Below, piece by piece: positions 3,123 to 25,461 of a DNA stretch of 29,911 nucleotides. The DNA is from a virus. Made by a program: the position numbers and the translations under genes. Positions within the stretch are counted from its first letter, which is position 1, and the number at the start of each line of letters is the position of its first letter. Below the pieces are notes generated by a model. It worked only from the letters and a program-made list of their open reading frames with translations. It did not search any database and was not told where the DNA came from. Location of the stretch: the IMG/VR virus record IMGVR_UViG_3300032954_000058, positions 1 to 29,911 of that record; one strand, 5' to 3'.

Positions 3123-3159
3123 TTACTTCAAGCCCAAACTCAAACCTGGACTCAAACCA

Positions 3160-3999
3160 ATGCCCAAATTCAAAGTAGGCGACAAAATCCAATACATCGG
3201 CCCAGAACCTTGTTCAGTCTCCCTTATGGAAGAAGGCGATATTGCCGAAGTAATAAACATCGACCCAATAGAAAACTACTACCATGGCTATTTTAACTTT
3301 GAATTCAAATTCATCTTCACTCAAAATGAACTTCTTTGCAAAGCTGAATTTACCTGGCGCGGTGTTGAAAACTCTTGGCGACTTGTTCCTTCTGATACCA
3401 AATTCAGAGTCGGCGATATAATCAAATACGTCGGCCCGAAATCCATGGGAATAAATGGTCTAACAATCGGCGACACTGCTAAAGTAACAATCGCCTATCC
3501 TCCAGATTCTTTTTCAACCAAATTCGAAATAATTCAATTCAGATTTATTTCCACAAAAAGCGAATTTCTTAACGACGCAAATAATACTTGGAATTGTTAC
3601 GCCGACTCTTGGAGATTAGTCGAAATCTCAGACCAAATCCCAGACCAACAAATTGAACTCGAAAAAGCAATTGAAGCAATAAAAACCATTGAACTCGAAA
3701 AAGACCTCAAATCAAAGTACGAATCCAAATTCTTTCCTGGCGACATAATCAAATGGAAAGGCGGCAATCGTCTAGGTATAAATTTCCTAACAATTGGTGA
3801 TCTTGCAGAAGTAATCACCAACGACAAAAGCACTGGACTAATTTTCAAATTCTTCAACCCAAAACAAGGAGCTATAAATAATCATTGGCATGGAAATCAA
3901 AATGACTGGGAATTAGTCCCTGGACAAATCGCACCAAAAAAGACTCCAGACTTAACCAAACTAAAACCACAAACCATCATCCTCGACAGTTTAGACTAA
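3160..3999 (+). CDS. Three-repeat SH3/KOW-like domain protein (279 aa)
   Basis: Three homologous domains of about 70 residues begin near residues 5, 81 and 191. Each opens with F(K/R/F)xGDxIxYxG and has GDxAEV about 20 residues later, and each closes with a Trp-containing WRLV/WELV. The spacing and beta-rich character suggest small SH3-like barrels. The second and third are joined by a charged helical linker (residues about 155-185, ELEKAIEAIKTIELEKDL). The gene at 2755 is a one-domain relative, and the protein at 16933 has a similar VGDRIESIG start. Function unknown; tandem barrels of this kind often bind nucleic acid or protein, but that is only a possibility here. Confidence 0.6.
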   Translation: MPKFKVGDKIQYIGPEPCSVSLMEEGDIAEVINIDPIENYYHGYFNFEFKFIFTQNELLCKAEFTWRGVENSWRLVPSDTKFRVGDIIKYVGPKSMGINGLTIGDTAKVTIAYPPDSFSTKFEIIQFRFISTKSEFLNDANNTWNCYADSWRLVEISDQIPDQQIELEKAIEAIKTIELEKDLKSKYESKFFPGDIIKWKGGNRLGINFLTIGDLAEVITNDKSTGLIFKFFNPKQGAINNHWHGNQNDWELVPGQIAPKKTPDLTKLKPQTIILDSLD

Positions 4000-7360: not shown

Positions 7361-7574
7361 CGAAAAACAGAAACCAGATTTCATTGCCAACGACTTTGCG
7401 GCGATAAACAGAGCTTTGAAAGAATTAAAACCCGAGACTAAAGCCAAGAAACAACCCTGTCCTGTCTGCAATGACGCAGGCTGGGTAGAAGTCTATTACA
7501 GCGGCTATCCCGTTGCTGTAACATGCCCTGAATGTCAGGAATCAACAGAGTATTTCAGCCATGATGGAATTTAA
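7353..7574 (+). CDS. Zinc-ribbon-type small protein (73 aa)
   Basis: A 73-aa protein with two CxxC knuckles, CPVCNDAGW and CPEC, separated by a short aromatic hairpin, the layout of a DnaJ-like or rubredoxin-like zinc ribbon. The start at 7353 lies within the end of the previous gene (ACGGAGAAAAGAATG gives a GGAG Shine-Dalgarno). Its end overlaps the macro-domain gene by 14 bp, so the three genes form a translationally coupled run. Confidence 0.6.
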   Translation: MSDEKQKPDFIANDFAAINRALKELKPETKAKKQPCPVCNDAGWVEVYYSGYPVAVTCPECQESTEYFSHDGI

Positions 7575-8025
7575 ATCAGGAAACATCCTCCTAGACAAAA
7601 GCGATGCAATAGTAAATACGGTCAACTGTGAAGGGATTTGCGGCGCAGGTTTGGCGAAAGAATTTAAACTAATGTATGAGGACAATTTTAGGGCCTATGC
7701 TGAGTTCTGCCGACAAAACAGATTGCGGCCCGGAAAAATCTGTCTCTATATTATCGAAAATTCTGCCCTCTATCCACCGCGCGCGATCTTCAATCTCGCA
7801 ACCAAGGCCAATTGGCAACAGCCGAGCAAAATGCAATGGATAAAAGCTGGCATTGCCGAAATCCACCTATTTGTTTTGACGCTCAATTACAAGTCGGTGG
7901 CAATTCCCGCGCTTGGCTGCAATAACGGCGGGCTAGACTGGGACAAAGTAAAATTGCTCTTAATCCAGCAATTCAAATCTGTCCCTTATGCAGTGACTAT
8001 CTACAACCCTCTAACTCAGGACTAA
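7561..8025 (+). CDS. Macro-domain protein (TARG1/DarG-like ADP-ribose hydrolase)
   Basis: A full-length single macro domain of 154 aa. The N-terminus FKSGNILLDKSDAIVNTVNC leads into EGICGAGLAKEFK, the ADP-ribose-binding loop with an invariant Asn and Gly-rich turn, and the C-terminal half has VAIPALGCNNGGLDW, the second ligand loop. Among macro domains the GxGLAxEF pattern and GCNNGGLDW best match the ALC1-like group, which includes TARG1 and DarG and can remove ADP-ribose from proteins or DNA. A phage copy could reverse host ADP-ribosylation defences or recycle ADP-ribose derivatives, which is inference. Two adjacent ATG codons at 7561 and 7564 could both serve. Confidence 0.8.
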   Translation: MMEFKSGNILLDKSDAIVNTVNCEGICGAGLAKEFKLMYEDNFRAYAEFCRQNRLRPGKICLYIIENSALYPPRAIFNLATKANWQQPSKMQWIKAGIAEIHLFVLTLNYKSVAIPALGCNNGGLDWDKVKLLLIQQFKSVPYAVTIYNPLTQD

Positions 8026-8029
8026 TCTT

Positions 8030-8419
8030 ATGCGTGTCGATCGAATTAAAGAAACAGTTAAACTTCTCCGCAATGCTTCAAGCGTACTAAATAGGTTTGA
8101 CTATTCTTGCTGGGGAGAAAGAATCAATAGCTGTGATACTGTCGCTTGCGCTGGCGGGCTGATGACTCTTTATCCGCCATTTAATGCCGGAGGACTTTAT
8201 CATGGCTATGGAAGTTTTGTGCCAATGTATGACATAGAGGATCAAACTTTCCTTGGCGTTGTTGCCTTAGAGGTGTTTCTCGAACTTACGGAGGAACAAG
8301 CAACAACCGCTTTTTGCAGTCTTCACACACATTTGGGCAAATCCATAAGGGCTATAACGGCAGATGATGTTGCCGACTATCTTGAATCTCTTCTAGAGGA
8401 AGAAACCAATGAACATTGA
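8030..8419 (+). CDS. CxTxACAGG-motif phage protein, copy 1 (129 aa)
   Basis: The first of a tandem pair with the next gene, and related to the protein at 15716. It shares RIKETVKLLRNA at the N-terminus, SCDTVACAGGLMTLYPPF in the middle and ITADDVADYLESLLEEE at the end. This kind of phage protein (N-terminal helix, Cys motif C-x-T-x-x-C-A-x-G, C-terminal 'i...DVa..l') is common, but I know of no assigned function. It overlaps the next gene by 11 bp. Confidence 0.65.
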   Translation: MRVDRIKETVKLLRNASSVLNRFDYSCWGERINSCDTVACAGGLMTLYPPFNAGGLYHGYGSFVPMYDIEDQTFLGVVALEVFLELTEEQATTAFCSLHTHLGKSIRAITADDVADYLESLLEEETNEH

Positions 8420-8801
8420 ACGCATGGAAGAAACGATTAAACTTCTCCGAAATGCGAAACTGAAATTCGATTATTCCGAGTGGGGTTCAATTGAAAATTG
8501 TGGAACTACTGCTTGTGCCGGTGGGCTGATGACTTTGTATCCTCCTTTTCGGGCACAAGGACTTTATCACGACGAGCACAATTTACAGCCAAGATATAAA
8601 GACTCAGATGGTTTTATTTGGCGTGGGTCATTCGCGCTAGCAGTGTTTCTTGACATTGACGAAGAAGATGCAGAAAATGCCTTTATCAACCTTGATTGTA
8701 TGTTGGGCAAAAACTGTAATAAAATTACAGCAAACGATGTGGCAGATTTTCTGGAACTTCTTATAAAAGAAGAAGAGGAAAAGGAAAAAGCAAATGACTG
8801 A
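8409..8801 (+). CDS. CGTTACAGG-motif phage protein, copy 2 (130 aa)
   Basis: A tandem duplicate of the preceding gene: MNIERMEETIKLLRNAK, then NCGTTACAGGLMTLYPPF, a hydrophobic ALAVFLDIDEEDA segment and ITANDVADFLELL, followed by an acidic tail. The start is inside the previous gene (GAAACCAATG). The third paralogue at 15716 begins with nearly the same MNIERMEQ and has CGTTCCAIGWA, so copy 2 is the closer relative of it. Confidence 0.65.
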   Translation: MNIERMEETIKLLRNAKLKFDYSEWGSIENCGTTACAGGLMTLYPPFRAQGLYHDEHNLQPRYKDSDGFIWRGSFALAVFLDIDEEDAENAFINLDCMLGKNCNKITANDVADFLELLIKEEEEKEKAND

Positions 8802-11024: not shown

Positions 11025-11435
11025 ATGTCTGAAAATTCTGTTTCTAATGTCAAAACTTTTCCTATCGTTGGTAGCTATTATAGGCCGCCTGCGAAACTGA
11101 TTCTGGAGCATTTGGCGATCGACACGCCGATGTATTTGGAAGCAGAGCCGACAAATCCCTACGACGTTAATGCCATTGCGGTGTATCTCGAATCGAAAGA
11201 TATTCCAGAAGCTACGCTCAAGGCTCTTGAGCCGCTTCTGCCCGCTTGTGGTCACAGTCTCGAATCACTGGAAGATATGAAGACAATTCATCTTGGATAT
11301 ATTCCGAAGGAATTGGCGAAAATTCTACGGGGCCGGGATTTCCATTCAGCAGATGGAACATTTACTACAAGTTCTTCTGGCGCACCTCAGATCAAATTTA
11401 TTGATCCGTCGAAGCCGATGCCGCAAGATGCGTGA
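11025..11435 (+). CDS. HIRAN-domain protein (136 aa)
   Basis: The pattern of a HIRAN domain is clear: FPIVGSYYRPPAKLILEHL at the start, then LEAEPTNPYDVNAIAVYLE (the EP-x-NPYDxNAIxV signature), then HLGYIPKELAKIL. HIRAN domains recognise DNA ends or unusual DNA and are often fused to helicases or nucleases; here the domain stands alone, as in several phages. It likely acts on phage or host DNA during replication or repair, though the partner is unknown. Leader AAGGACTAAATCCA gives the Shine-Dalgarno. It overlaps the next gene by 8 bp. Confidence 0.8.
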   Translation: MSENSVSNVKTFPIVGSYYRPPAKLILEHLAIDTPMYLEAEPTNPYDVNAIAVYLESKDIPEATLKALEPLLPACGHSLESLEDMKTIHLGYIPKELAKILRGRDFHSADGTFTTSSSGAPQIKFIDPSKPMPQDA

Positions 11436-11948: not shown

Positions 11949-12090
11949 TTCACGCCGCTTGCGGCGGTGAGAAGCAGGTTTGTGAAACTATAGCAAGTCT
12001 GCGATATTAGCAAAGATACTGTTTTCGATTTAAACTTCCAGCAACTTTAAGCTTCGCTTTTTAGCTTCACAGTTTCGCCGTGGCAGGCGA

Positions 12091-12161
12091 TCTTGAGTAG
12101 CGTAGAGTTCGGTTACTTCTCAGCATGTAAGCAAAACCGGACTCGATTTGATCTCTCAGGA
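12091..12161 (+). ncRNA. Y RNA-like element 1 (no tRNA module)
   Basis: Stem 1 is TCTTGAG (12091-12097) / CTCAGGA (12155-12161), with one G-U. Inside it come the conserved 5' strand TAGCGTAGA, stem 2 (GAGTTCGGTT / AACCGGACTC, 10 bp with one G-U) and the conserved 3' strand CGATTTGATCT. Elements 2, 3 and 4 share this layout, and all four lie upstream of a Ro60 homologue. Ro proteins bind Y RNAs at an end-closing helix with conserved internal-loop bases, so I read these as Y RNAs. Promoter and ends are not visible with confidence. Confidence 0.6.
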
Positions 12162-12169
12162 CTTTGTTT

Positions 12170-12352
12170 TGGTGGATAGCGTTAGAGACGGGTACTTCGT
12201 GTATGGGTTCGAGTCCCATACAAATTTGATGCGAGATTAAGTCAAAGGCGATAAAAAGTCTATTGAACTTGAAATCAAATCTTGTTTGTTCGCCTAATTG
12301 GTAGGGCAAAAGTGGGCCGAAAGGCACACCGTCTTTGTTTTAACTTCCACTA
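12170..12352 (+). ncRNA. Y RNA-like element 2 with permuted tRNA-like module
   Basis: Stem 1 is TGGTGGA (12170-12176) / TCCACTA (12346-12352). Next come TAGCGTTAG and stem 2 AGACGG (12186-12191) / CCGTCT (12329-12334). Inside is a tRNA-like module in permuted order: a canonical T-arm ATGGG-TTCGAGT-CCCAT (12203-12219), an acceptor-like stem ATTTGAT (12224-12230) / ATCAAAT (12274-12280), then a D-arm GCC-TAATTGGTAG-GGC (12292-12307) and a GAAA-capped hairpin. The T-arm precedes the D-arm, so the module opens at the anticodon position, as in bacterial YrlA-type Y RNAs. Confidence 0.7.
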
Positions 12353-12365
12353 CCCAATGGAATAG

Positions 12366-12635
12366 ATGATGACCAGAAACGAAGAAATTGCTAAAGTATT
12401 GCGCGCCGCAGCCGAAGGATATTTGGCGCCATACCAGCCGGTAATGCCGCAAGGATGCAATGGCGGAAGTACAATGTTTAGTGGTGGCGGAGGTGGTGGT
12501 TTTGCCTATATCTCTTACAGCGAAAAAGACTATAATGAAGCAAAATGTGTAGCCAGTGCCTTCAATGCCATTGCAAGAGTGTATGAGGCATTAGCTATGG
12601 CCGAAAAAGAAGAAAGCAAAACAAAAACACTATAA
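12366..12635 (+). CDS. Hypothetical protein with poly-Gly stretch (89 aa)
   Basis: An 89-aa protein between the two pairs of Y RNA-like elements. It has a helical N-terminus (NEEIAKVLRAAAEGYL), a glycine run (GGGGGG around residue 40) followed by FAYISYSEKDYN, and a helical C-terminus (ASAFNAIARVYEALAMAEKEE). No family recognised. Two ATG codons (12366 and 12369) could start it. Its position inside the Y-RNA/Ro locus is the only hint of function. Confidence 0.55.
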   Translation: MMTRNEEIAKVLRAAAEGYLAPYQPVMPQGCNGGSTMFSGGGGGGFAYISYSEKDYNEAKCVASAFNAIARVYEALAMAEKEESKTKTL

Positions 12636-12636
12636 A

Positions 12637-12768
12637 GTGATAGATAGCGTAGGATAGAGTTACTTCATTGCTAATGATGTGGCAAAGGTTCGAATCCTTT
12701 AACTGTCGCAAGCCAGTTTGGTGTAATGGTAGCACACAAAATAACTCTGCCGCTTGATCTTCTATCAC
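12637..12768 (+). ncRNA. Y RNA-like element 3 with permuted tRNA-like module
   Basis: Stem 1 is perfect: GTGATAGA (12637-12644) / TCTATCAC (12761-12768). Next is TAGCGTAGG, then stem 2 AGAGTTA (12656-12662) / TAACTCT (12742-12748), with 3' loop CTTGATCT. Within stem 2, in order: a small hairpin TCATT-GCT-AATGA, a canonical T-arm AAAGG-TTCGAAT-CCTTT (12684-12700), an acceptor-like hairpin AACTG (12701-12705) / CAGTT (12714-12718), and a textbook D-arm GTGTAATGGTAGCAC (12721-12735). That is exactly a tRNA opened at the anticodon stem. It starts 2 bp after the previous gene. Confidence 0.75.
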
Positions 12769-12783
12769 CCGTGCCGCAGACAA

Positions 12784-12809: not shown

Positions 12810-12877
12810 TGCCAGATAGCGTTAGATACGGTTACTTCTTATGGAGAATCAGTCCGTGTCGATTTGATCTTCTGGCA
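12810..12877 (+). ncRNA. Y RNA-like element 4 (minimal, no tRNA module)
   Basis: Stem 1 is TGCCAGA (12810-12816) / TCTGGCA (12871-12877). The 5' loop TAGCGTTA, stem 2 GATACGG / CCGTGTC (7 bp, one G-U) with a short apical hairpin, and the 3' loop CGATTTGATCT complete the element. At about 68 nt it is the minimal Ro-binding form, without a tRNA-like insert. It ends 30 bp before the Ro60 gene, so it may lie in that gene's leader. Confidence 0.65.
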
Positions 12878-12907
12878 GATTTAAATCTTAAATAAAGCAG
12901 GAAAACC

Positions 12908-14266
12908 ATGAAACTCAATATCACTCGGAAGTCTGACCCGATTTTTACTGCCGAAGGTGGTAAGGCTGTGCATATTACTCCGACGCAGCAATTGCGTCGT
13001 TCTGTTATGTCCTGCCTGCTGTGGGAGGATGAATTTTATGAATCAGGAGAAGATATTACCACCCGAATCAAAAATCTGGTGCAAGTTGTGCCGCCGGTTG
13101 AAGTTGCCCGTATGGCAATCGAAGCACGTACTTCGCAGCACCTTCGCCATGTTCCTTTACTTCTTATGGCTTCTCTCGCCGGAGTTGCCGGTGGTACTTC
13201 TCTTGTGTCTGATACTCTGGCTCAGGTAATTCAGCGCGCTGATGAACTGGCCGAGTTTCTTGCAATCTATGCAAAGGTTAATGGCGTTGAGCCAAAAAAT
13301 CTAAAATCCAAACTTTCGAATCAGGTCCGCAAGGGCCTAGCGAAAGCATTTGTCAAATTCAATGCCTATAGTTTGGCAAAGTACAATCGCGATGGAGTAA
13401 TTACTCTGCGCGACGTGCTGTTTCTTTGCCACGCAAAGCCGCTGAATCCAGAGCAGGCCGCTGTTTGGGCAAAGCTCATCGACAATACTCTGGAATCGCC
13501 GGATACTTGGGAAGTTCAACTGTCTGCCGGTGCAAATAAGAAAGAGACTTTTGAGCGCCTAATCCGCGAAGGCAAGCTGGGATATTTGGCACTGCTGCGC
13601 AATTTGCGCAACATGACTCAGGCAGGTTGTGACTTTCAATTGGTCCGTGATGCAATTATTGCCCGCCAAAACGGTGCGGAAAAGGTTCTGCCTTTCCGTT
13701 ACATTGCCGCTGCAAACGCCGCGCCGCAATTTGCAAACGAACTCAATGTTTCGCTTTTGCAGACAGTTGCTGATTCGCCAGAACTCAAAGGCGAGACCGT
13801 AATTCTTGTCGATAATTCTGGTTCTATGTATCAGAAATTGTCGCAAAAGTCCGATCTCGAACGTATTGACGCTGCCGCTGCACTGGCGTCGATTATTCGC
13901 GGAAATCGTCGCGTCTTTAGCTTTGCCTGGGGTATGCAAGAAGTTGCACCGTATCCAGGGCTTGCAGGTGTTACTGCGATCAAGAACACACCGTCCGGTG
14001 GGACGCGGCTATTTGAGTCGATTGAACAGATTAATAGCACAATCCCGTATGAACGTATTATTGTGATTACGGACGAACAGGCTTTTGGCTATGGCCAGAG
14101 CGGTTGTCCGAAGCCGCTGCCGGGAACTAAAGGCTATATGATTAACGTCGCTAGTGCCAAAAATGGCGTCGGCTATGGCGAATGGAATCATATTGACGGA
14201 TTTTCGGAAAACGTCATCCGTTGGATTCTGGCTCTCGAAGAAGAAACTGCTGGCGGGACTGTTTAA
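12908..14266 (+). CDS. rsr: Ro60/Rsr homologue (TROVE + vWA domain)
   Basis: A 452-aa protein with the architecture of Ro60. The N-terminal TROVE/HEAT-repeat region (about 1-290) begins with QQLRRSVMSCLLWEDEFYE and includes EARTSQHLRHVPLLLM, typical of the family. It is followed by a von Willebrand A domain with an intact MIDAS, DNSGS at residues 302-306, and an ITDEQ segment. Ro binds Y RNAs and misfolded RNA ends; bacterial Rsr works with PNPase or other nucleases in RNA decay and maturation. It is slightly shorter than vertebrate Ro60 (about 540 aa). Start supported by GCAGGAAAACC. The four Y RNA-like elements lie directly upstream. Confidence 0.9.
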   Translation: MKLNITRKSDPIFTAEGGKAVHITPTQQLRRSVMSCLLWEDEFYESGEDITTRIKNLVQVVPPVEVARMAIEARTSQHLRHVPLLLMASLAGVAGGTSLVSDTLAQVIQRADELAEFLAIYAKVNGVEPKNLKSKLSNQVRKGLAKAFVKFNAYSLAKYNRDGVITLRDVLFLCHAKPLNPEQAAVWAKLIDNTLESPDTWEVQLSAGANKKETFERLIREGKLGYLALLRNLRNMTQAGCDFQLVRDAIIARQNGAEKVLPFRYIAAANAAPQFANELNVSLLQTVADSPELKGETVILVDNSGSMYQKLSQKSDLERIDAAAALASIIRGNRRVFSFAWGMQEVAPYPGLAGVTAIKNTPSGGTRLFESIEQINSTIPYERIIVITDEQAFGYGQSGCPKPLPGTKGYMINVASAKNGVGYGEWNHIDGFSENVIRWILALEEETAGGTV

Positions 14267-15715: not shown

Positions 15716-16219
15716 ATGAACATCGAACGTATGGAACAAATAGTCCGGGTTTTGCATGAAGTCAGTGCAAAGCACAAACGCTTTAGCCTTTCCACATGGC
15801 ATATGGATGGACCGTGTGGAACAACTTGTTGTGCTATCGGTTGGGCAGCCGAAGACTCTTGGCATCAGGCGCAGGGACTTGGCAATTGCTTTGTTGCCGA
15901 CTATCATACTTTTCCTGTCGGTATGCCAGTCTTTACTAACGCCGAAGGAATTGAACTTTCCGGCTTTGCAGCCGCTGCCGAATACCTGGACATTACTTAC
16001 GAAATGACGCAGGAACTATTCTCGGTCGTTTACTACAAACCGGCTTATGGATTTTCGGAAATCCGGCCCGAAGACGTAATCGCCAAGATCAATAAATATC
16101 TTCTGGCCGAAAAGGCCAAGGCAAAAGCAAAGCCAGAGCCGAAAAACGAAGATATTTTTATCTTTCCCCGAGCCGAAATCGTCCCACAACCGCCGATTTA
16201 TGTGGATGAATTGGTTTAA
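15716..16219 (+). CDS. CGTTCCAIG-motif phage protein, copy 3 (167 aa)
   Basis: A dispersed paralogue of the pair at 8030-8801. It starts MNIERMEQIVRVL like copy 2 and has CGTTCCAIGWAAEDS in the Cys region, a form (CGTxxCxIGWA) common in phages. It is longer because of a C-terminal extension rich in KAKAK and PQPP. ATG 15716 follows CTGGAGCTAACT, a strong GGAG Shine-Dalgarno. Function unknown. Confidence 0.65.
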   Translation: MNIERMEQIVRVLHEVSAKHKRFSLSTWHMDGPCGTTCCAIGWAAEDSWHQAQGLGNCFVADYHTFPVGMPVFTNAEGIELSGFAAAAEYLDITYEMTQELFSVVYYKPAYGFSEIRPEDVIAKINKYLLAEKAKAKAKPEPKNEDIFIFPRAEIVPQPPIYVDELV

Positions 16220-21985: not shown

Positions 21986-22002
21986 TCTAAAGCTTTAAGC
22001 CA

Positions 22003-24313
22003 AAAGGCAAAATAGTACCACTACTTTGCGAGCGAGCCAAAATCACCGATAGAATCAACCTCTCTAAACGAATCAAATAGGGTGAAAGTACCAAATTCTA
22101 TGAATGAATCAAAACCTCCAAAAGTATCGTGCCACATGACTGAACCTAGAAATGCGATAGTATCTTGCAACGAGAGTGAGCCAAAACATGAGATAGCATC
22201 AGACATCCGGAGCGAGCCATATACACCGAAAGTACCAAACGTCAAGAGTGAGCCATATACAAGAGATAGAACCATGTATTGCGGGCGAACCAGAGTAACA
22301 GACAGAATCAGTGTAAGAGAGTGAACCAAATTTGAAGACAGCACCAGACCATTAGAGTGAACCAAACTTCCAGACAGAATCTTATCATAAGAGTGAATCA
22401 CAGGACTAAACAGCATCAGACAGAAAGAATGAATCATATTCTGCGACAGGATCATACCCTTAGACTGAATCAGAACTAGAAATAGAACCAATTCTTCAGA
22501 ATGAGTCTTGCTGGTGGAAAGTATCATATCTGCTAAACGAATCTAATCCAGCGACAGTACCAGTTCCCACGAATGAATCAAACAATCAGACAGTACCAGA
22601 CCCTCAGAATGAATCAAAAGATAAGACAGAATCATGTTGCGAGAATGAATCAAATGTTCGGACAGTATCACATTCCGAGAATGAATCAGAAGTTCAGACA
22701 GTACCTATACACACGAATGAATCATAGGATAAGACAGTGCCAAAAGCTTAGAATGAGTCAGCCTGAAGGATAGTATCCGACCGATAGAACGAATTAAAGC
22801 ACGAATCAAACCACGAAACAGTGCCAGAAATCGCGAATGAACCAGAACATGCGAAAGAATCTATAGAATTGAGTGAATCGAAACAAAAGATAGTATCACT
22901 GGTCATGAATGAGCCAAACTAAGAGATAGAATCAGGTGCTCAGGTCGAATCAAAACTTATGATAGTACCATCCCCGGTGAATGAACCAAAATTAAAGATA
23001 GAATCAAGGCTTGATGAGTGAACCACATGAAAAGACAGAATCACACCACCCATATAAGCCACTTAACAAGACAGAATCACATCGTTAGTGCGAGCCATTT
23101 AGCAAGATAGTATCACGCCACGAGTGCGAACCATATTTGCGGACAGAATCACTTCCTCCGTGTGAGCCATGTTTGACGAAAGAATCGTTTCTTCTGTGCG
23201 AGTCAGACAAGATAATAGAATCATTACGTCAGAACGAACCAACCGAAAGGATAGAATCACATTGCTCAAGTGAGTCAAACATGAAGATAGAATCTCTAGA
23301 TTAGAACGAGTCATAGAGAAAGATAGAATCAAGACATATGATCGAATCAACCTTCCAGACAGTATCAAGGCATATGAATGAATCAGACCACGAGATAGAA
23401 CCACTCCATATGACTGAATCTAGCCTTTGGACAGAACCAAATTTCAAGAATGAGTCAAATGATTTGACAGAATCATTGATAAGGAACGAATCAAGCCTCT
23501 AGATAGAACCAAATTCAGCAAATGAGCCAAACCAAAAGACAGCATCAGCGCACACGAGCGAATCAAATCCTTTAAATGAGCCAGACCAAAAAACAGTACC
23601 AATCACTCTGGGCGAGTCAAGCCACCCGATAGAATCTTTCCTAATGGACGAATCAAGCTTTAAGAAAGTACCACGTCTCTTGAATGAGTCAAGTCAAATG
23701 ACAGAACCAAGTTTAAAGAACGAACCATAAAGTGTGACAGAACCGTGTCATATAAGTGAATCAGGTAAAGCGATAGGACCACGGTATCCAAATGAATCAG
23801 ATCAATGGATAGTATCATCCGCTCAGAATGAATCAGGTCAAGAAACAGTACCATAGCTACCGAATGAATCAGATCTACTGAAAGTACCACCCAATCAGAA
23901 TGAATCAACTCAGAGGACAGAACCAATATTAGCAAATGAATCAAACGTTATGACAGTACCAGTAGAAGTGAATGAATCAATTTGAAGGATAGAACCATGA
24001 AACCTGACTGAATCAATATAAGAGACAGAACCAAATCTCCTGACTGAATCAGTTAAAAGGACAGTACCAAAACCTCCGACTGAATCGCAATGAATCAGTG
24101 CAAAGGATAGAATCATATCATCCGACTGAGCCCAAATGACAAATAGCATCAATTGGTTAGTGCGAATCAGATACTGCGACAGAATCATAAGAAATGAATG
24201 AATCAGAGCCACAGACAGAATCATGTGGAGTAAATGAACCAGAAGACAAGATAGAACCATCATCCGCGAGTGAGCCAAGGATTGCAAGAGTACCAACATC
24301 CCAAGAGCCTGAA
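22003..24313 (+). repeat. About 128 alternating 18-bp units (36-bp period), 8 variable + 10 conserved bases
   Basis: A head-to-tail, single-orientation array fills the whole gap between two genes. Each unit is 8 variable bases plus a conserved 10-mer. Type A core is GARYGARYCA (e.g. GAATGAATCA, 22571-22580); type B core is GAYAGWAYCA (e.g. GACAGTACCA, 22589-22598). A and B alternate from 22003 to the end. Exceptions found by hand: AA neighbours at 22779-22808 (second unit cut to 12 bases), 23548-23583, and 24070-24097 (second cut to 10); 19-base units at 22021, 22256 and 23007. Position 9 of the core is C in nearly every unit. Octamers are almost all different. No gene is supported: stops break all frames and the 19-mers shift phase. 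Confidence 0.95.
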
Positions 24314-24330
24314 TCTGAAAGCAAGACTAA

Positions 24331-25461
24331 ATGAAAATTCTATTCGTTGGTGAAGCATACGGCGTTTCAGAAGACATGTTTAAATCCCCATTCGTCGGCG
24401 CTGCCGGGCGCGAACTGGCGAATATGCTTTCAGATGCAGAAATTGTATCAAAACCCTACAAACCGTTTATGACTGAACTCGATATGATTAGATTTTGGAA
24501 AAATGCTGCGCAAGAGAATCAGATTCAGTTGACAAATGTGTTCTCTGAGCAGCCGCCCGACAATAATGTCGAGTTCTTTTTTGACGCCCGCAGCGCAGAT
24601 GTATGTAAGGAGATTCTGCCGCTAAAGCCAGGAAAGTACCTAAAGAAAAACTATGAATATTATTACAAAGCTTTGCATGATTTGATCTTACAGTCAAAAC
24701 CGAATCTAGTAGTCGCTCTCGGAGTTACTGCCGGGTGGGCTTTGACTGAAAGAGGAAATATATCTGAAATCCGAGGTACAGTTTTTTGGTCAGAAAAATT
24801 GAAGGCCAAAATCCTTTGCACCTGGCATCCTGCTGCTGTATTAAGGCAGTGGTCACTTCGCTCGATTACAATTGCAGACTTTATCAAGGCCCGGAGAGAG
24901 TGTGAGTTTCCTGAAATCCGAAAAATTACCCGCCGGATTTTGGTCGATCCGACACTGCAAGAAATCGAAGAATGGCTTGAAGTCCCTGCCACTGCCTACG
25001 CAGTAGATATTGAAACAGGTTATGCACTTTTCTCAAAGACAGAAATTGCTCGTCTCGCAAAGCAGGCGCCAGATATGCTGCGGCTTTTGGCAGGCCAAAT
25101 TTCGATGGTCGGCTTCGCTCGTAGTGCAACAGAGGCAATGGTTATACCGTTTATGGCGCGAAATGCGCCCGGAATGAACTATTGGCCGCACGTGCAAGAT
25201 GAAATCAGAGCGATGAAGCTACTGCAAAAGGGCTTGGCCTCGCCAATACCTAAGATTTTCCAGAATGGCCTTTTCGACATGAATCGACTTCTGTGTGCAG
25301 GACTTAGAACATATTGCGCCCGTGAGGATACGATGCTCAAGCATCATAGTTTGTTCCCCGAACTGCAAAAAGGTCTCGGGTTTTTGGGCAGTCTTTATAC
25401 TGATGAAACATCTTGGAAAGGAATGTTGAAGGAAGGCGAAAGCTTGAAGAAAGACAACTGA
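24331..25461 (+). CDS. Uracil-DNA glycosylase-like + 3'-5' exonuclease (first half of split DNA polymerase)
   Basis: Residues 1 to about 190 form a UDG-superfamily domain: VGEAYG at 6-11 (motif A), the strand VVALGVTAG, and TWHPAAVLRQ (motif B with HPA). It is followed by an exonuclease domain with ExoI YAVDIETG (D226, E228) and ExoII FQNGLFDMNRL (D316), then HSLFPELQKGLGFLGSLYTD leading toward ExoIII. The protein stops shortly after, at ...SLKKDN. The missing ExoIII (YNAMD) is at the start of the polymerase gene at 27458. UDG fused to a family A polymerase exonuclease occurs in phages; the split here is unusual. The start follows the repeat array by 17 bp with no strong Shine-Dalgarno. Confidence 0.8.
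   Translation: MKILFVGEAYGVSEDMFKSPFVGAAGRELANMLSDAEIVSKPYKPFMTELDMIRFWKNAAQENQIQLTNVFSEQPPDNNVEFFFDARSADVCKEILPLKPGKYLKKNYEYYYKALHDLILQSKPNLVVALGVTAGWALTERGNISEIRGTVFWSEKLKAKILCTWHPAAVLRQWSLRSITIADFIKARRECEFPEIRKITRRILVDPTLQEIEEWLEVPATAYAVDIETGYALFSKTEIARLAKQAPDMLRLLAGQISMVGFARSATEAMVIPFMARNAPGMNYWPHVQDEIRAMKLLQKGLASPIPKIFQNGLFDMNRLLCAGLRTYCAREDTMLKHHSLFPELQKGLGFLGSLYTDETSWKGMLKEGESLKKDN

What the first reader, a model, noticed from the sequence alone, without database searches (positions are those of the whole stretch)
12170..12768. Two Y RNA-like elements contain circularly permuted tRNA mimics
Elements 2 and 3 contain a perfect T-arm (7-base TTCGA(G/A)T loop), an acceptor-like hairpin and then a D-arm (TAATTGGTAG and TAATGGTAG loops), in T-acceptor-D order. 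The chain opens where the anticodon stem would be, and that stem continues into the Ro-binding helix. YrlA-type bacterial Y RNAs are known tRNA mimics with this logic. Element 3's D-arm equals that of real tRNAs of the GTGTAATGGTAGCAC type. The acceptor is closed by a loop, so no CCA end and no aminoacylation are expected.
Basis: partly seen in the sequence, partly recalled or inferred. Interest (0 to 1): 0.7.

Follow-up and report, generated by a model that had tools for sequence, protein, structure and literature searches.

The report
Phage Y RNA carrying permuted tRNA mimic
Next to its Ro-like RNA-binding protein gene, this uncultured phage encodes a cluster of small Y RNAs, at least one of which contains a tRNA copied in rearranged order; this is a known kind of RNA, but here, as in dozens of relatives, the mimic also keeps an anticodon arm that the standard description lacks.

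Summary
Both sit in a cluster of four Y RNA-like elements just upstream of a TROVE/Rsr (Ro60-like) gene (12908-14266) on a phage contig. A covariance model built from 42 relatives, with the window left out, hits element 3 at 80.7 bits (E 1.3e-19), short elements 1 and 4 at 36 and 34 bits, and divergent element 2 at 27 bits. The T-acceptor-D order is the Rfam YrlA layout, and a YrlA crystal structure is already described as a circular permutation of tRNA. Two points are added. (1) Element 3 and about 40 relatives also keep an anticodon hairpin with a tRNA-like 7-nt loop (U33 39/40, purine 37 39/40). Its lower stem is closed by the strand after the D-arm, with strong covariation: the Ro-binding stem enters inside the anticodon stem. 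This makes ARAGORN, and depositors of at least three cultured phages, call false tRNAs. (2) Three distant phages carry the mimic cut elsewhere: acceptor-D-anticodon-T, or an unpermuted cloverleaf. Expression, Rsr binding and function are untested.

The parts
12091..12164 (+). Element 1: short Y RNA-like element without a tRNA module (Ro-type stem with apical loop)
   Evidence: R1 36.3 bits, E 2e-9 in 1 kb with filters off; not found by the default-filter whole-window search; shares UAGCGUAG...GGUUACUUC...UUUGAUCU with the others
12170..12352 (+). Element 2: divergent Y RNA-like element with a T-arm (12201-12221), a long hairpin in the acceptor place, a D-arm-like motif (12292-12307) and Ro-type stem 12171-12176/12346-12351 plus 12186-12191/12329-12334
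   Evidence: R1 26.9 bits at 12177-12345; fold z -3.2; T-arm and stems probability about 1, D-arm 0.02
12638..12770 (+). Element 3: YrlA-type Y RNA with permuted tRNA mimic
   Evidence: R1 80.7 bits, E 1.3e-19, full length
12666..12679 (+). Anticodon hairpin of element 3: upper stem CA/UG, loop UUGCUAA (anticodon GCU), 3' strand of lower stem AUG that can pair 2 of 3 with CAA at 12737-12739
   Evidence: direct reading plus family statistics
12684..12700 (+). T-arm of element 3, AAAGG-UUCGAAU-CCUUU
12701..12718 (+). Acceptor hairpin of element 3, AACUG...CAGUU, closed by a loop (no CCA end)
   Evidence: pairing probability only about 0.12 without comparative support
12721..12735 (+). D-arm of element 3, GUGU-AAUGGUA-GCAC
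   Evidence: the same 15-mer occurs in a Y RNA of L099
12810..12880 (+). Element 4: short Y RNA-like element without a tRNA module
   Evidence: R1 33.6 bits, E 3.2e-7; fold z -4.3
12908..14266 (+). rsr: TROVE/Ro60-like protein, 452 aa, with a weak VWA match
   Evidence: Pfam PF05731 E 2.6e-16; PDB profile hits include Ro60 and Rsr; residues aligned with Ro60 K170/H187 are K158 (19/19) and H175 (17/19)

Best explanation
Elements 1-4 are the Y RNA partners of the phage-encoded Rsr. Shown by sequence and comparison: a common Ro-type stem, linkage to rsr, and in element 3 a circularly permuted tRNA body (T-arm, loop-closed acceptor, D-arm) that also keeps a split anticodon arm, with the Ro stem entering through the 5' strand of the anticodon stem. 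Inferred: the stem docks on the outer face of the Rsr ring. The short RNAs (1, 4) gate the ring. The tRNA body of element 3, and perhaps element 2, is folded and modified like tRNA by host enzymes and serves as a handle that brings a tRNA- or RNA-binding effector, most likely host PNPase or another tRNA-processing enzyme, to the ring, forming an RNA-decay or RNA quality-control particle during infection. Likelihoods: identity as Y RNAs of the YrlA kind about 0.9 (element 3) and 0.65 (element 2); split anticodon arm in the family about 0.8; the scaffold mechanism about 0.5.
For: The TROVE gene is adjacent and residues aligned with the Y RNA-contacting K170/H187 of Ro60 are conserved (the role of those residues is from memory). 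A model built without the window hits all four elements. There are 202 + 248 matches in phage and bacterial rsr loci, all on the rsr strand, and 57 of 80 phage loci have a full-length match of at least 60 bits (some loci are near-duplicates or cut short). 26 of 29 consensus pairs have compensatory changes. A full-length Rfam YrlA match of 41.2 bits in L015 has the same arm order. Anticodon arm: 28 of 42 selected elements have all three lower-stem pairs against 8.0 expected and at most 15 in 5000 shuffles; 18 elements have a complete open anticodon stem against 2.2 expected. Without selection on pairing, lower-stem covariation is 0.855 against 0.223 shuffled, and at most 0.452 for slid versions. 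Loops chosen by pairing alone have U33 39/40, purine 37 39/40 and A38 34/40. The scaffold role follows the published Deinococcus Rsr-Y RNA-PNPase particle and DusA/TruB modification of YrlA, as reviewed in PMC8394870.
Against: No transcript data exist for this phage, and no sigma70-type promoter was found upstream. In element 3, energy-based folding prefers a hairpin that breaks the acceptor arm by 1.8 kcal/mol, and the split anticodon stem has only 2 of 3 lower pairs. Element 2 lacks a well-supported D-arm and has degenerate Ro-site letters. Rfam's YrlA model does not recognise the window at all, and L015 is under its gathering score. Phage Rsr is distant from the characterised Ro60 and Rsr structures, so the tethering partner cannot be deduced.
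Confidence: 0.8

Rival explanations
1. The tRNA-like Y RNAs are decoys: by showing a complete tRNA outline with a real anticodon loop, they absorb or inhibit host anticodon nucleases or other tRNA-targeting defences, with Rsr stabilising them.
For: A complete anticodon arm with U33/R37 and 18 different anticodon triplets is kept in about 40 elements. PMC7790460 proposes that YrlA could competitively inhibit an anticodon nuclease in Salmonella. Phages gain from protecting tRNAs.
Against: The same RNAs occur in many of the 80 loci taken from bacterial genomes, though some may be prophages. Anticodons are broad and not centred on known nuclease targets. Many family members have only an open anticodon stem or no tRNA module. 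No functional data.
Confidence: 0.2
2. The T-arm-containing part of element 3 is a decayed or genuine tRNA-Ser(GCU) gene in normal order, as ARAGORN and Rfam call it.
For: ARAGORN calls tRNA-Ser(gct) at 12639-12709; Rfam tRNA scores 29.6 bits, just over its threshold.
Against: The call uses the 5' strand of the Ro stem as acceptor, with mismatches, and a poor D-arm. The whole 133-nt element matches the Y RNA model at 80.7 bits. 22 loci give the same kind of false call from the same signature, and three cultured phage records carry it as an annotated tRNA overlapping a Y RNA match.
Confidence: 0.02
3. The T-, D- and anticodon-like pieces are inert remains of tRNA genes captured into Y RNA loci; only the Ro stem matters.
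For: Anticodon loops look like those of many different tRNAs, which suggests repeated capture. Short elements 1 and 4 lack the module. Element 2's module looks eroded. Adjacent tRNA genes naturally create the T-acceptor-D order, and the model picks up such tandem junctions.
Against: Compensatory changes run through T, acceptor and anticodon helices at 96% pairing across diverse loci, and most relative loci have at least one module. Inert remains would lose pairing.
Confidence: 0.1

Closest known systems
YrlA, bacterial Y RNA (Rfam RF02553; Salmonella structure 6CU1)
   Same: Ro/Rsr-linked, Ro-type stem, T-arm then loop-closed acceptor hairpin then D-arm, circular permutation of tRNA
   Different: The window is not detected by the Rfam model. 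The Rfam consensus has a 4-bp anticodon-position stem directly continuing to the Ro stem and no anticodon loop, whereas element 3 and about 40 relatives keep an anticodon hairpin, with the Ro stem entering inside its 5' strand.
Short bacterial and animal Y RNAs without tRNA module (Deinococcus Y RNA, YrlB-type, vertebrate Y RNAs)
   Same: Ro-type stem beside an Rsr gene (elements 1 and 4)
   Different: No sequence-level family match was obtained. The 5' letters UAGCGUUAG and 3' UUUGAUCU are a divergent form of the usual site (comparison with the published consensus is from memory).
Phage Rsr/Y RNA loci already reported (jumbo phages, PMC7824862; Listeria phage CKA15, PMC12282133; Chen et al. 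2014, cited there for mycobacteriophages)
   Same: Phage TROVE protein with proposed tRNA-like or Y RNA partner
   Different: These reports name the protein or suspect the RNA; the arms, their permutation and the anticodon arm in this lineage are not described in the passages read. The 2014 and 2018 primary papers are not held and could not be checked.
tmRNA and viral tRNA-like structures
   Same: tRNA mimicry with a T-arm
   Different: No alanine acceptor or CCA end, no reading frame, and circular permutation instead of a split or pseudoknotted acceptor

Membership tests
YrlA-type bacterial Y RNA | Encoded next to an rsr/Ro60 (TROVE) gene | tested here: met
   TROVE E 2.6e-16 at 12908-14266, about 28 bases downstream of element 4
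YrlA-type bacterial Y RNA | Ro-binding type stem shared with relatives | tested here: met
   Elements 1, 3 and 4 match R1 at 34-81 bits; element 2 is weaker and its 3' letters are degenerate
YrlA-type bacterial Y RNA | tRNA-like domain in the order T-arm, acceptor hairpin, D-arm (element 3) | tested here: met
   End-to-end model match, all module helices paired; same order in Rfam RF02553 consensus
YrlA-type bacterial Y RNA | tRNA-like domain in the order T-arm, acceptor hairpin, D-arm (element 2) | tested here: inconclusive
   T-arm certain; D-arm probability 0.02; about 60 extra bases in the acceptor place
YrlA-type bacterial Y RNA | Score over Rfam RF02553 gathering threshold (a detection limit, not a biological feature) | tested here: not met
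   No match in the window even at E up to 5; relative L015 41.2 bits against 69
YrlA-type bacterial Y RNA | Transcribed as a separate small RNA and bound by Rsr | not testable with these tools
   Needs RNA-seq and pull-down
YrlA-type bacterial Y RNA | Modified by TruB (pseudouridine) and DusA (dihydrouridine) | not testable with these tools
   Reported for YrlA (PMC8394870); target loops UUCGAAU and AAUGGUA are present
tRNA gene (rival) | Canonical order with 7-bp acceptor and free 3' end | tested here: not met
   The only call uses a mismatched Ro-stem strand as acceptor; the real acceptor is a closed hairpin after the T-arm

The most novel reading that the evidence does not exclude
Phage and bacterial Y RNAs include a class of complete four-arm tRNA mimics that keep a tRNA-like anticodon loop, with the Ro-binding stem inserted between positions 29 and 30 of the anticodon stem; element 3 is one. 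The family is so tolerant of where the tRNA circle is cut that some phages carry acceptor-D-anticodon-T (L009, L013) or an unpermuted initiator-tRNA-like cloverleaf (L100). This implies selection on the whole tRNA shape, anticodon included, for example as decoys for anticodon-reading enzymes.
Probability: 0.45. Interest if true: 0.65.

Novelty: new variant of a known kind. Interest (0 to 1): 0.42.

Why it matters
The core finding is a further member of a known class, useful mainly because Rfam misses it and tRNA finders misname it: ARAGORN makes the same false call in 22 of the loci studied, and three deposited cultured phages carry it as a tRNA. The refinement matters more. If the anticodon arm is really kept in phage Y RNAs, it points to a partner that reads the anticodon end of tRNA (nuclease, modification enzyme or ribosome), which the PNPase-tether model does not require. 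It also makes the question of why Y RNAs mimic tRNA testable in cultured Caulobacter, Brevundimonas and Xanthomonas phages.

Tried and rejected
Rfam at gathering and relaxed thresholds gave only a marginal tRNA match and a chance sRNA match in the window. A fifth element at 11974-12088 was suspected from letters but folds no better than shuffles. A first permutation test that let the anticodon stem lie anywhere gave only a weak excess (3.86 against 3.63); the position-specific test replaced it, and alignment-based counts on sequences not chosen for pairing were added as a control. My regular-expression Y RNA finder had about 11% background on the opposite strand (27 against 235), so counts in the report come from the covariance model. 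Several apparent D-anticodon-T orders were artefacts (most of them Ro-stem letters read as a D-arm); only L009, L013 and L100 survived inspection. Partial model matches (such as positions 28-109) fall in tandem tRNA arrays, not Y RNAs. The 89-aa ORF between elements 2 and 3 has no relative in the loci. The primary YrlA papers (Chen 2014, Wang 2018, reviews) are not held, so statements about their content beyond the citing papers are from memory.

Full report
WHAT WAS CHECKED. The window is a whole IMG/VR virus record of 29,911 bases. The finding points to 12170-12768. On the plus strand, four elements precede a 452-aa TROVE/Rsr gene at 12908-14266 (E 2.6e-16). Elements 1 (12091-12164) and 4 (12810-12880) are short. 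Elements 2 (12170-12352) and 3 (12638-12770) carry the reported tRNA-like parts. All four share 5' UAGCGUUAG or UAGCGUAG, then an inner helix and UACUUC, and (except element 2) 3' UUUGAUCU or CUUGAUCU.

INDEPENDENT MODEL. Relatives of the Rsr protein were fetched from viral contigs (20, then 80 loci) and bacterial genomes (80 loci). Nearly all loci with enough upstream sequence hold arrays of elements of the form GGUGGCGUAGG-inner helix-UUACUUC ... CGCUUGUUCCC. 42 tRNA-like ones, excluding the window and L023 (its best-matching viral locus, whose elements share its AGCG...UGAUC letters), were aligned. The consensus fold has 29 pairs, 26 of them with changes on both sides. The resulting model R1 hits element 3 at 80.7 bits, E 1.3e-19, and element 4 at 33.6 bits in the whole window. 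With filters off it hits element 1 at 36.3 bits and element 2 at 26.9 bits with the full T-acceptor-D layout and a 60-base insert. Across 160 relative loci plus the window the model gives 450 matches at E up to 0.01, every one on the rsr strand. In the phage set 57 of 80 loci have a full-length match of at least 60 bits (a few loci are near-duplicates or cut short). This settles that the feature is real and belongs with rsr.

COMPARISON WITH YrlA. Rfam's YrlA family (RF02553) aligns end to end with the element upstream of rsr in L015 (41.2 bits, below the gathering score of 69), in the order T-arm, acceptor hairpin, D-arm, all enclosed by a short stem at the anticodon position and then the Ro stem. 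A held methods paper reports that the bacterial Y RNA structure 6CU1 superposes on tRNAs by circular permutation (PMC11472068). A held review reports DusA and TruB modification of YrlA and its role in tethering Rsr to PNPase (PMC8394870). Reports of phage Rsr or suspected phage Y RNAs exist (PMC7824862, PMC12282133); from memory, the 2014 survey already covered phages.

WHAT IS DIFFERENT: THE ANTICODON ARM. In many relatives the stretch between UACUUC and the T-arm is 18-20 nt and reads like the end of a tRNA anticodon arm, for example GCCUUGUAAGCGGGAGGUC. If the Ro stem simply replaced the anticodon arm this would be unexplained. Parsing 80 strict elements in 67 loci shows two classes. In 18, a complete 5-bp anticodon stem (27-31 with 39-43) forms between the strands flanking the module, leaving the loop open (2.2 expected by shuffling). 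In 42, selected for upper pairs and U33, positions 30-31 pair with 39-40 as a local hairpin with a 7-nt loop, and positions 41-43 pair with the three bases after the D-arm (positions 27-29). All three lower pairs form in 28 of the 42, against 8.0 expected and at most 15 in 5000 shuffles. The two classes overlap slightly at the margins. Loops picked by pairing alone have U33 in 39 of 40, a purine at 37 in 39 of 40, and 18 different anticodon triplets. On 28 sequences chosen by the length of this stretch and not by pairing, the lower stem has covariation 0.855 against 0.223 for shuffles, and at most 0.452 for slid versions; the whole module is 96% paired. Shuffles ignore relatedness, so these are not probabilities, but the slid controls agree. 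Element 3 belongs to this class: CA/UG, loop UUGCUAA, and two of three lower pairs. This is why ARAGORN calls it tRNA-Ser(GCU). The same false call occurs in 22 of the loci scanned, and Y RNA matches overlap annotated tRNAs in CcrColossus, Kikimora and 10KY502B.

OTHER CUTS OF THE SAME CIRCLE. Three loci with Rsr proteins only 48-56% identical to each other hold Y RNAs with other orders. L013 (4797-4946) and L009 (4622-4768) have an acceptor-like hairpin, D-arm, anticodon arm, then T-arm. L100 (2855-2996) holds an initiator-tRNA-like cloverleaf in normal order, whose acceptor continues into the Ro stem. The minimum-energy folds of L013 (z -5.0) and L100 show exactly these arms; L009's is less clear, and L100's overall energy is not better than shuffles.

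WEAK POINTS. Element 2 has a perfect T-arm, but its D-arm is not favoured (probability 0.02), its acceptor region is long, and its 3' Ro-site is degenerate. It may be an eroded or differently built member. Element 3's acceptor arm is disfavoured by 1.8 kcal/mol in energy-only folding and rests on comparison. No promoter was recognised. Nothing here shows expression.

MECHANISM. The best-supported reading is a phage Ro ribonucleoprotein. Rsr keeps the residues aligned with Ro60 K170 and H187 (their role is from memory). Short Y RNAs would occupy the ring; tRNA-like ones would tether a host enzyme. That the anticodon end is also conserved makes a partner that reads the anticodon arm, or a decoy role, more likely than the bare PNPase-tether model would suggest; the decoy idea was already raised for Salmonella YrlA (PMC7790460).

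VERDICT. Real, correctly interpreted in outline, known kind; the retained anticodon arm and the alternative cuts are, as far as the held literature allows one to say, a new variant.

Noticed in passing
window 21990-24330: About 2.3 kb of degenerate array: roughly 100 copies of a 9-base core (RAYAGHAYC or NNYGARYC type, usually followed by A) at 18-base spacing, often alternating to give a 36-base period, directly upstream of the UDG-domain ORF at 24331; no obvious single reading frame.
   Followed up: partly
L183 2128-2195, L184 2790-2864, L185 2831-2898: Annotated tRNA-Gln, tRNA-Ser and tRNA-Thr of cultured phages CcrColossus, Kikimora and 10KY502B overlap Y RNA model matches just upstream of rsr and are probably mis-annotated.
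   Followed up: yes
L100 2855-2996: Y RNA whose interior is an initiator-tRNA-like cloverleaf in normal order (D-arm GAGCAGUGUGGUAGCUC, anticodon loop UUCAUAC) continuing into the Ro stem.
   Followed up: partly
L013 4797-4946 and L009 4622-4768: Y RNAs with order acceptor-like hairpin, D-arm, anticodon arm, T-arm: a different cut of the tRNA circle.
   Followed up: partly
window 12366-12635: 89-aa ORF lying between elements 2 and 3, with no Pfam match and no relative in the fetched loci.
   Followed up: partly
window 7561-8025 and 11025-11435: Macro-domain and HIRAN-domain proteins upstream of the Y RNA cluster; macro domains occur in RNA-repair contexts.
   Followed up: no
L004 1980-4505: A phage rsr locus with a dense tRNA array and a permuted alphaproteobacterial-type tmRNA (3156-3447) close to the Y RNAs.
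   Followed up: no
window 8030-8801 and 15716-16219: Several short ORFs beginning with similar N-termini (MRVDRIKETVKLLRNA, MNIERMEETIKLLRNA, MNIERMEQIVRVLHE), probably a duplicated unknown family.
   Followed up: no
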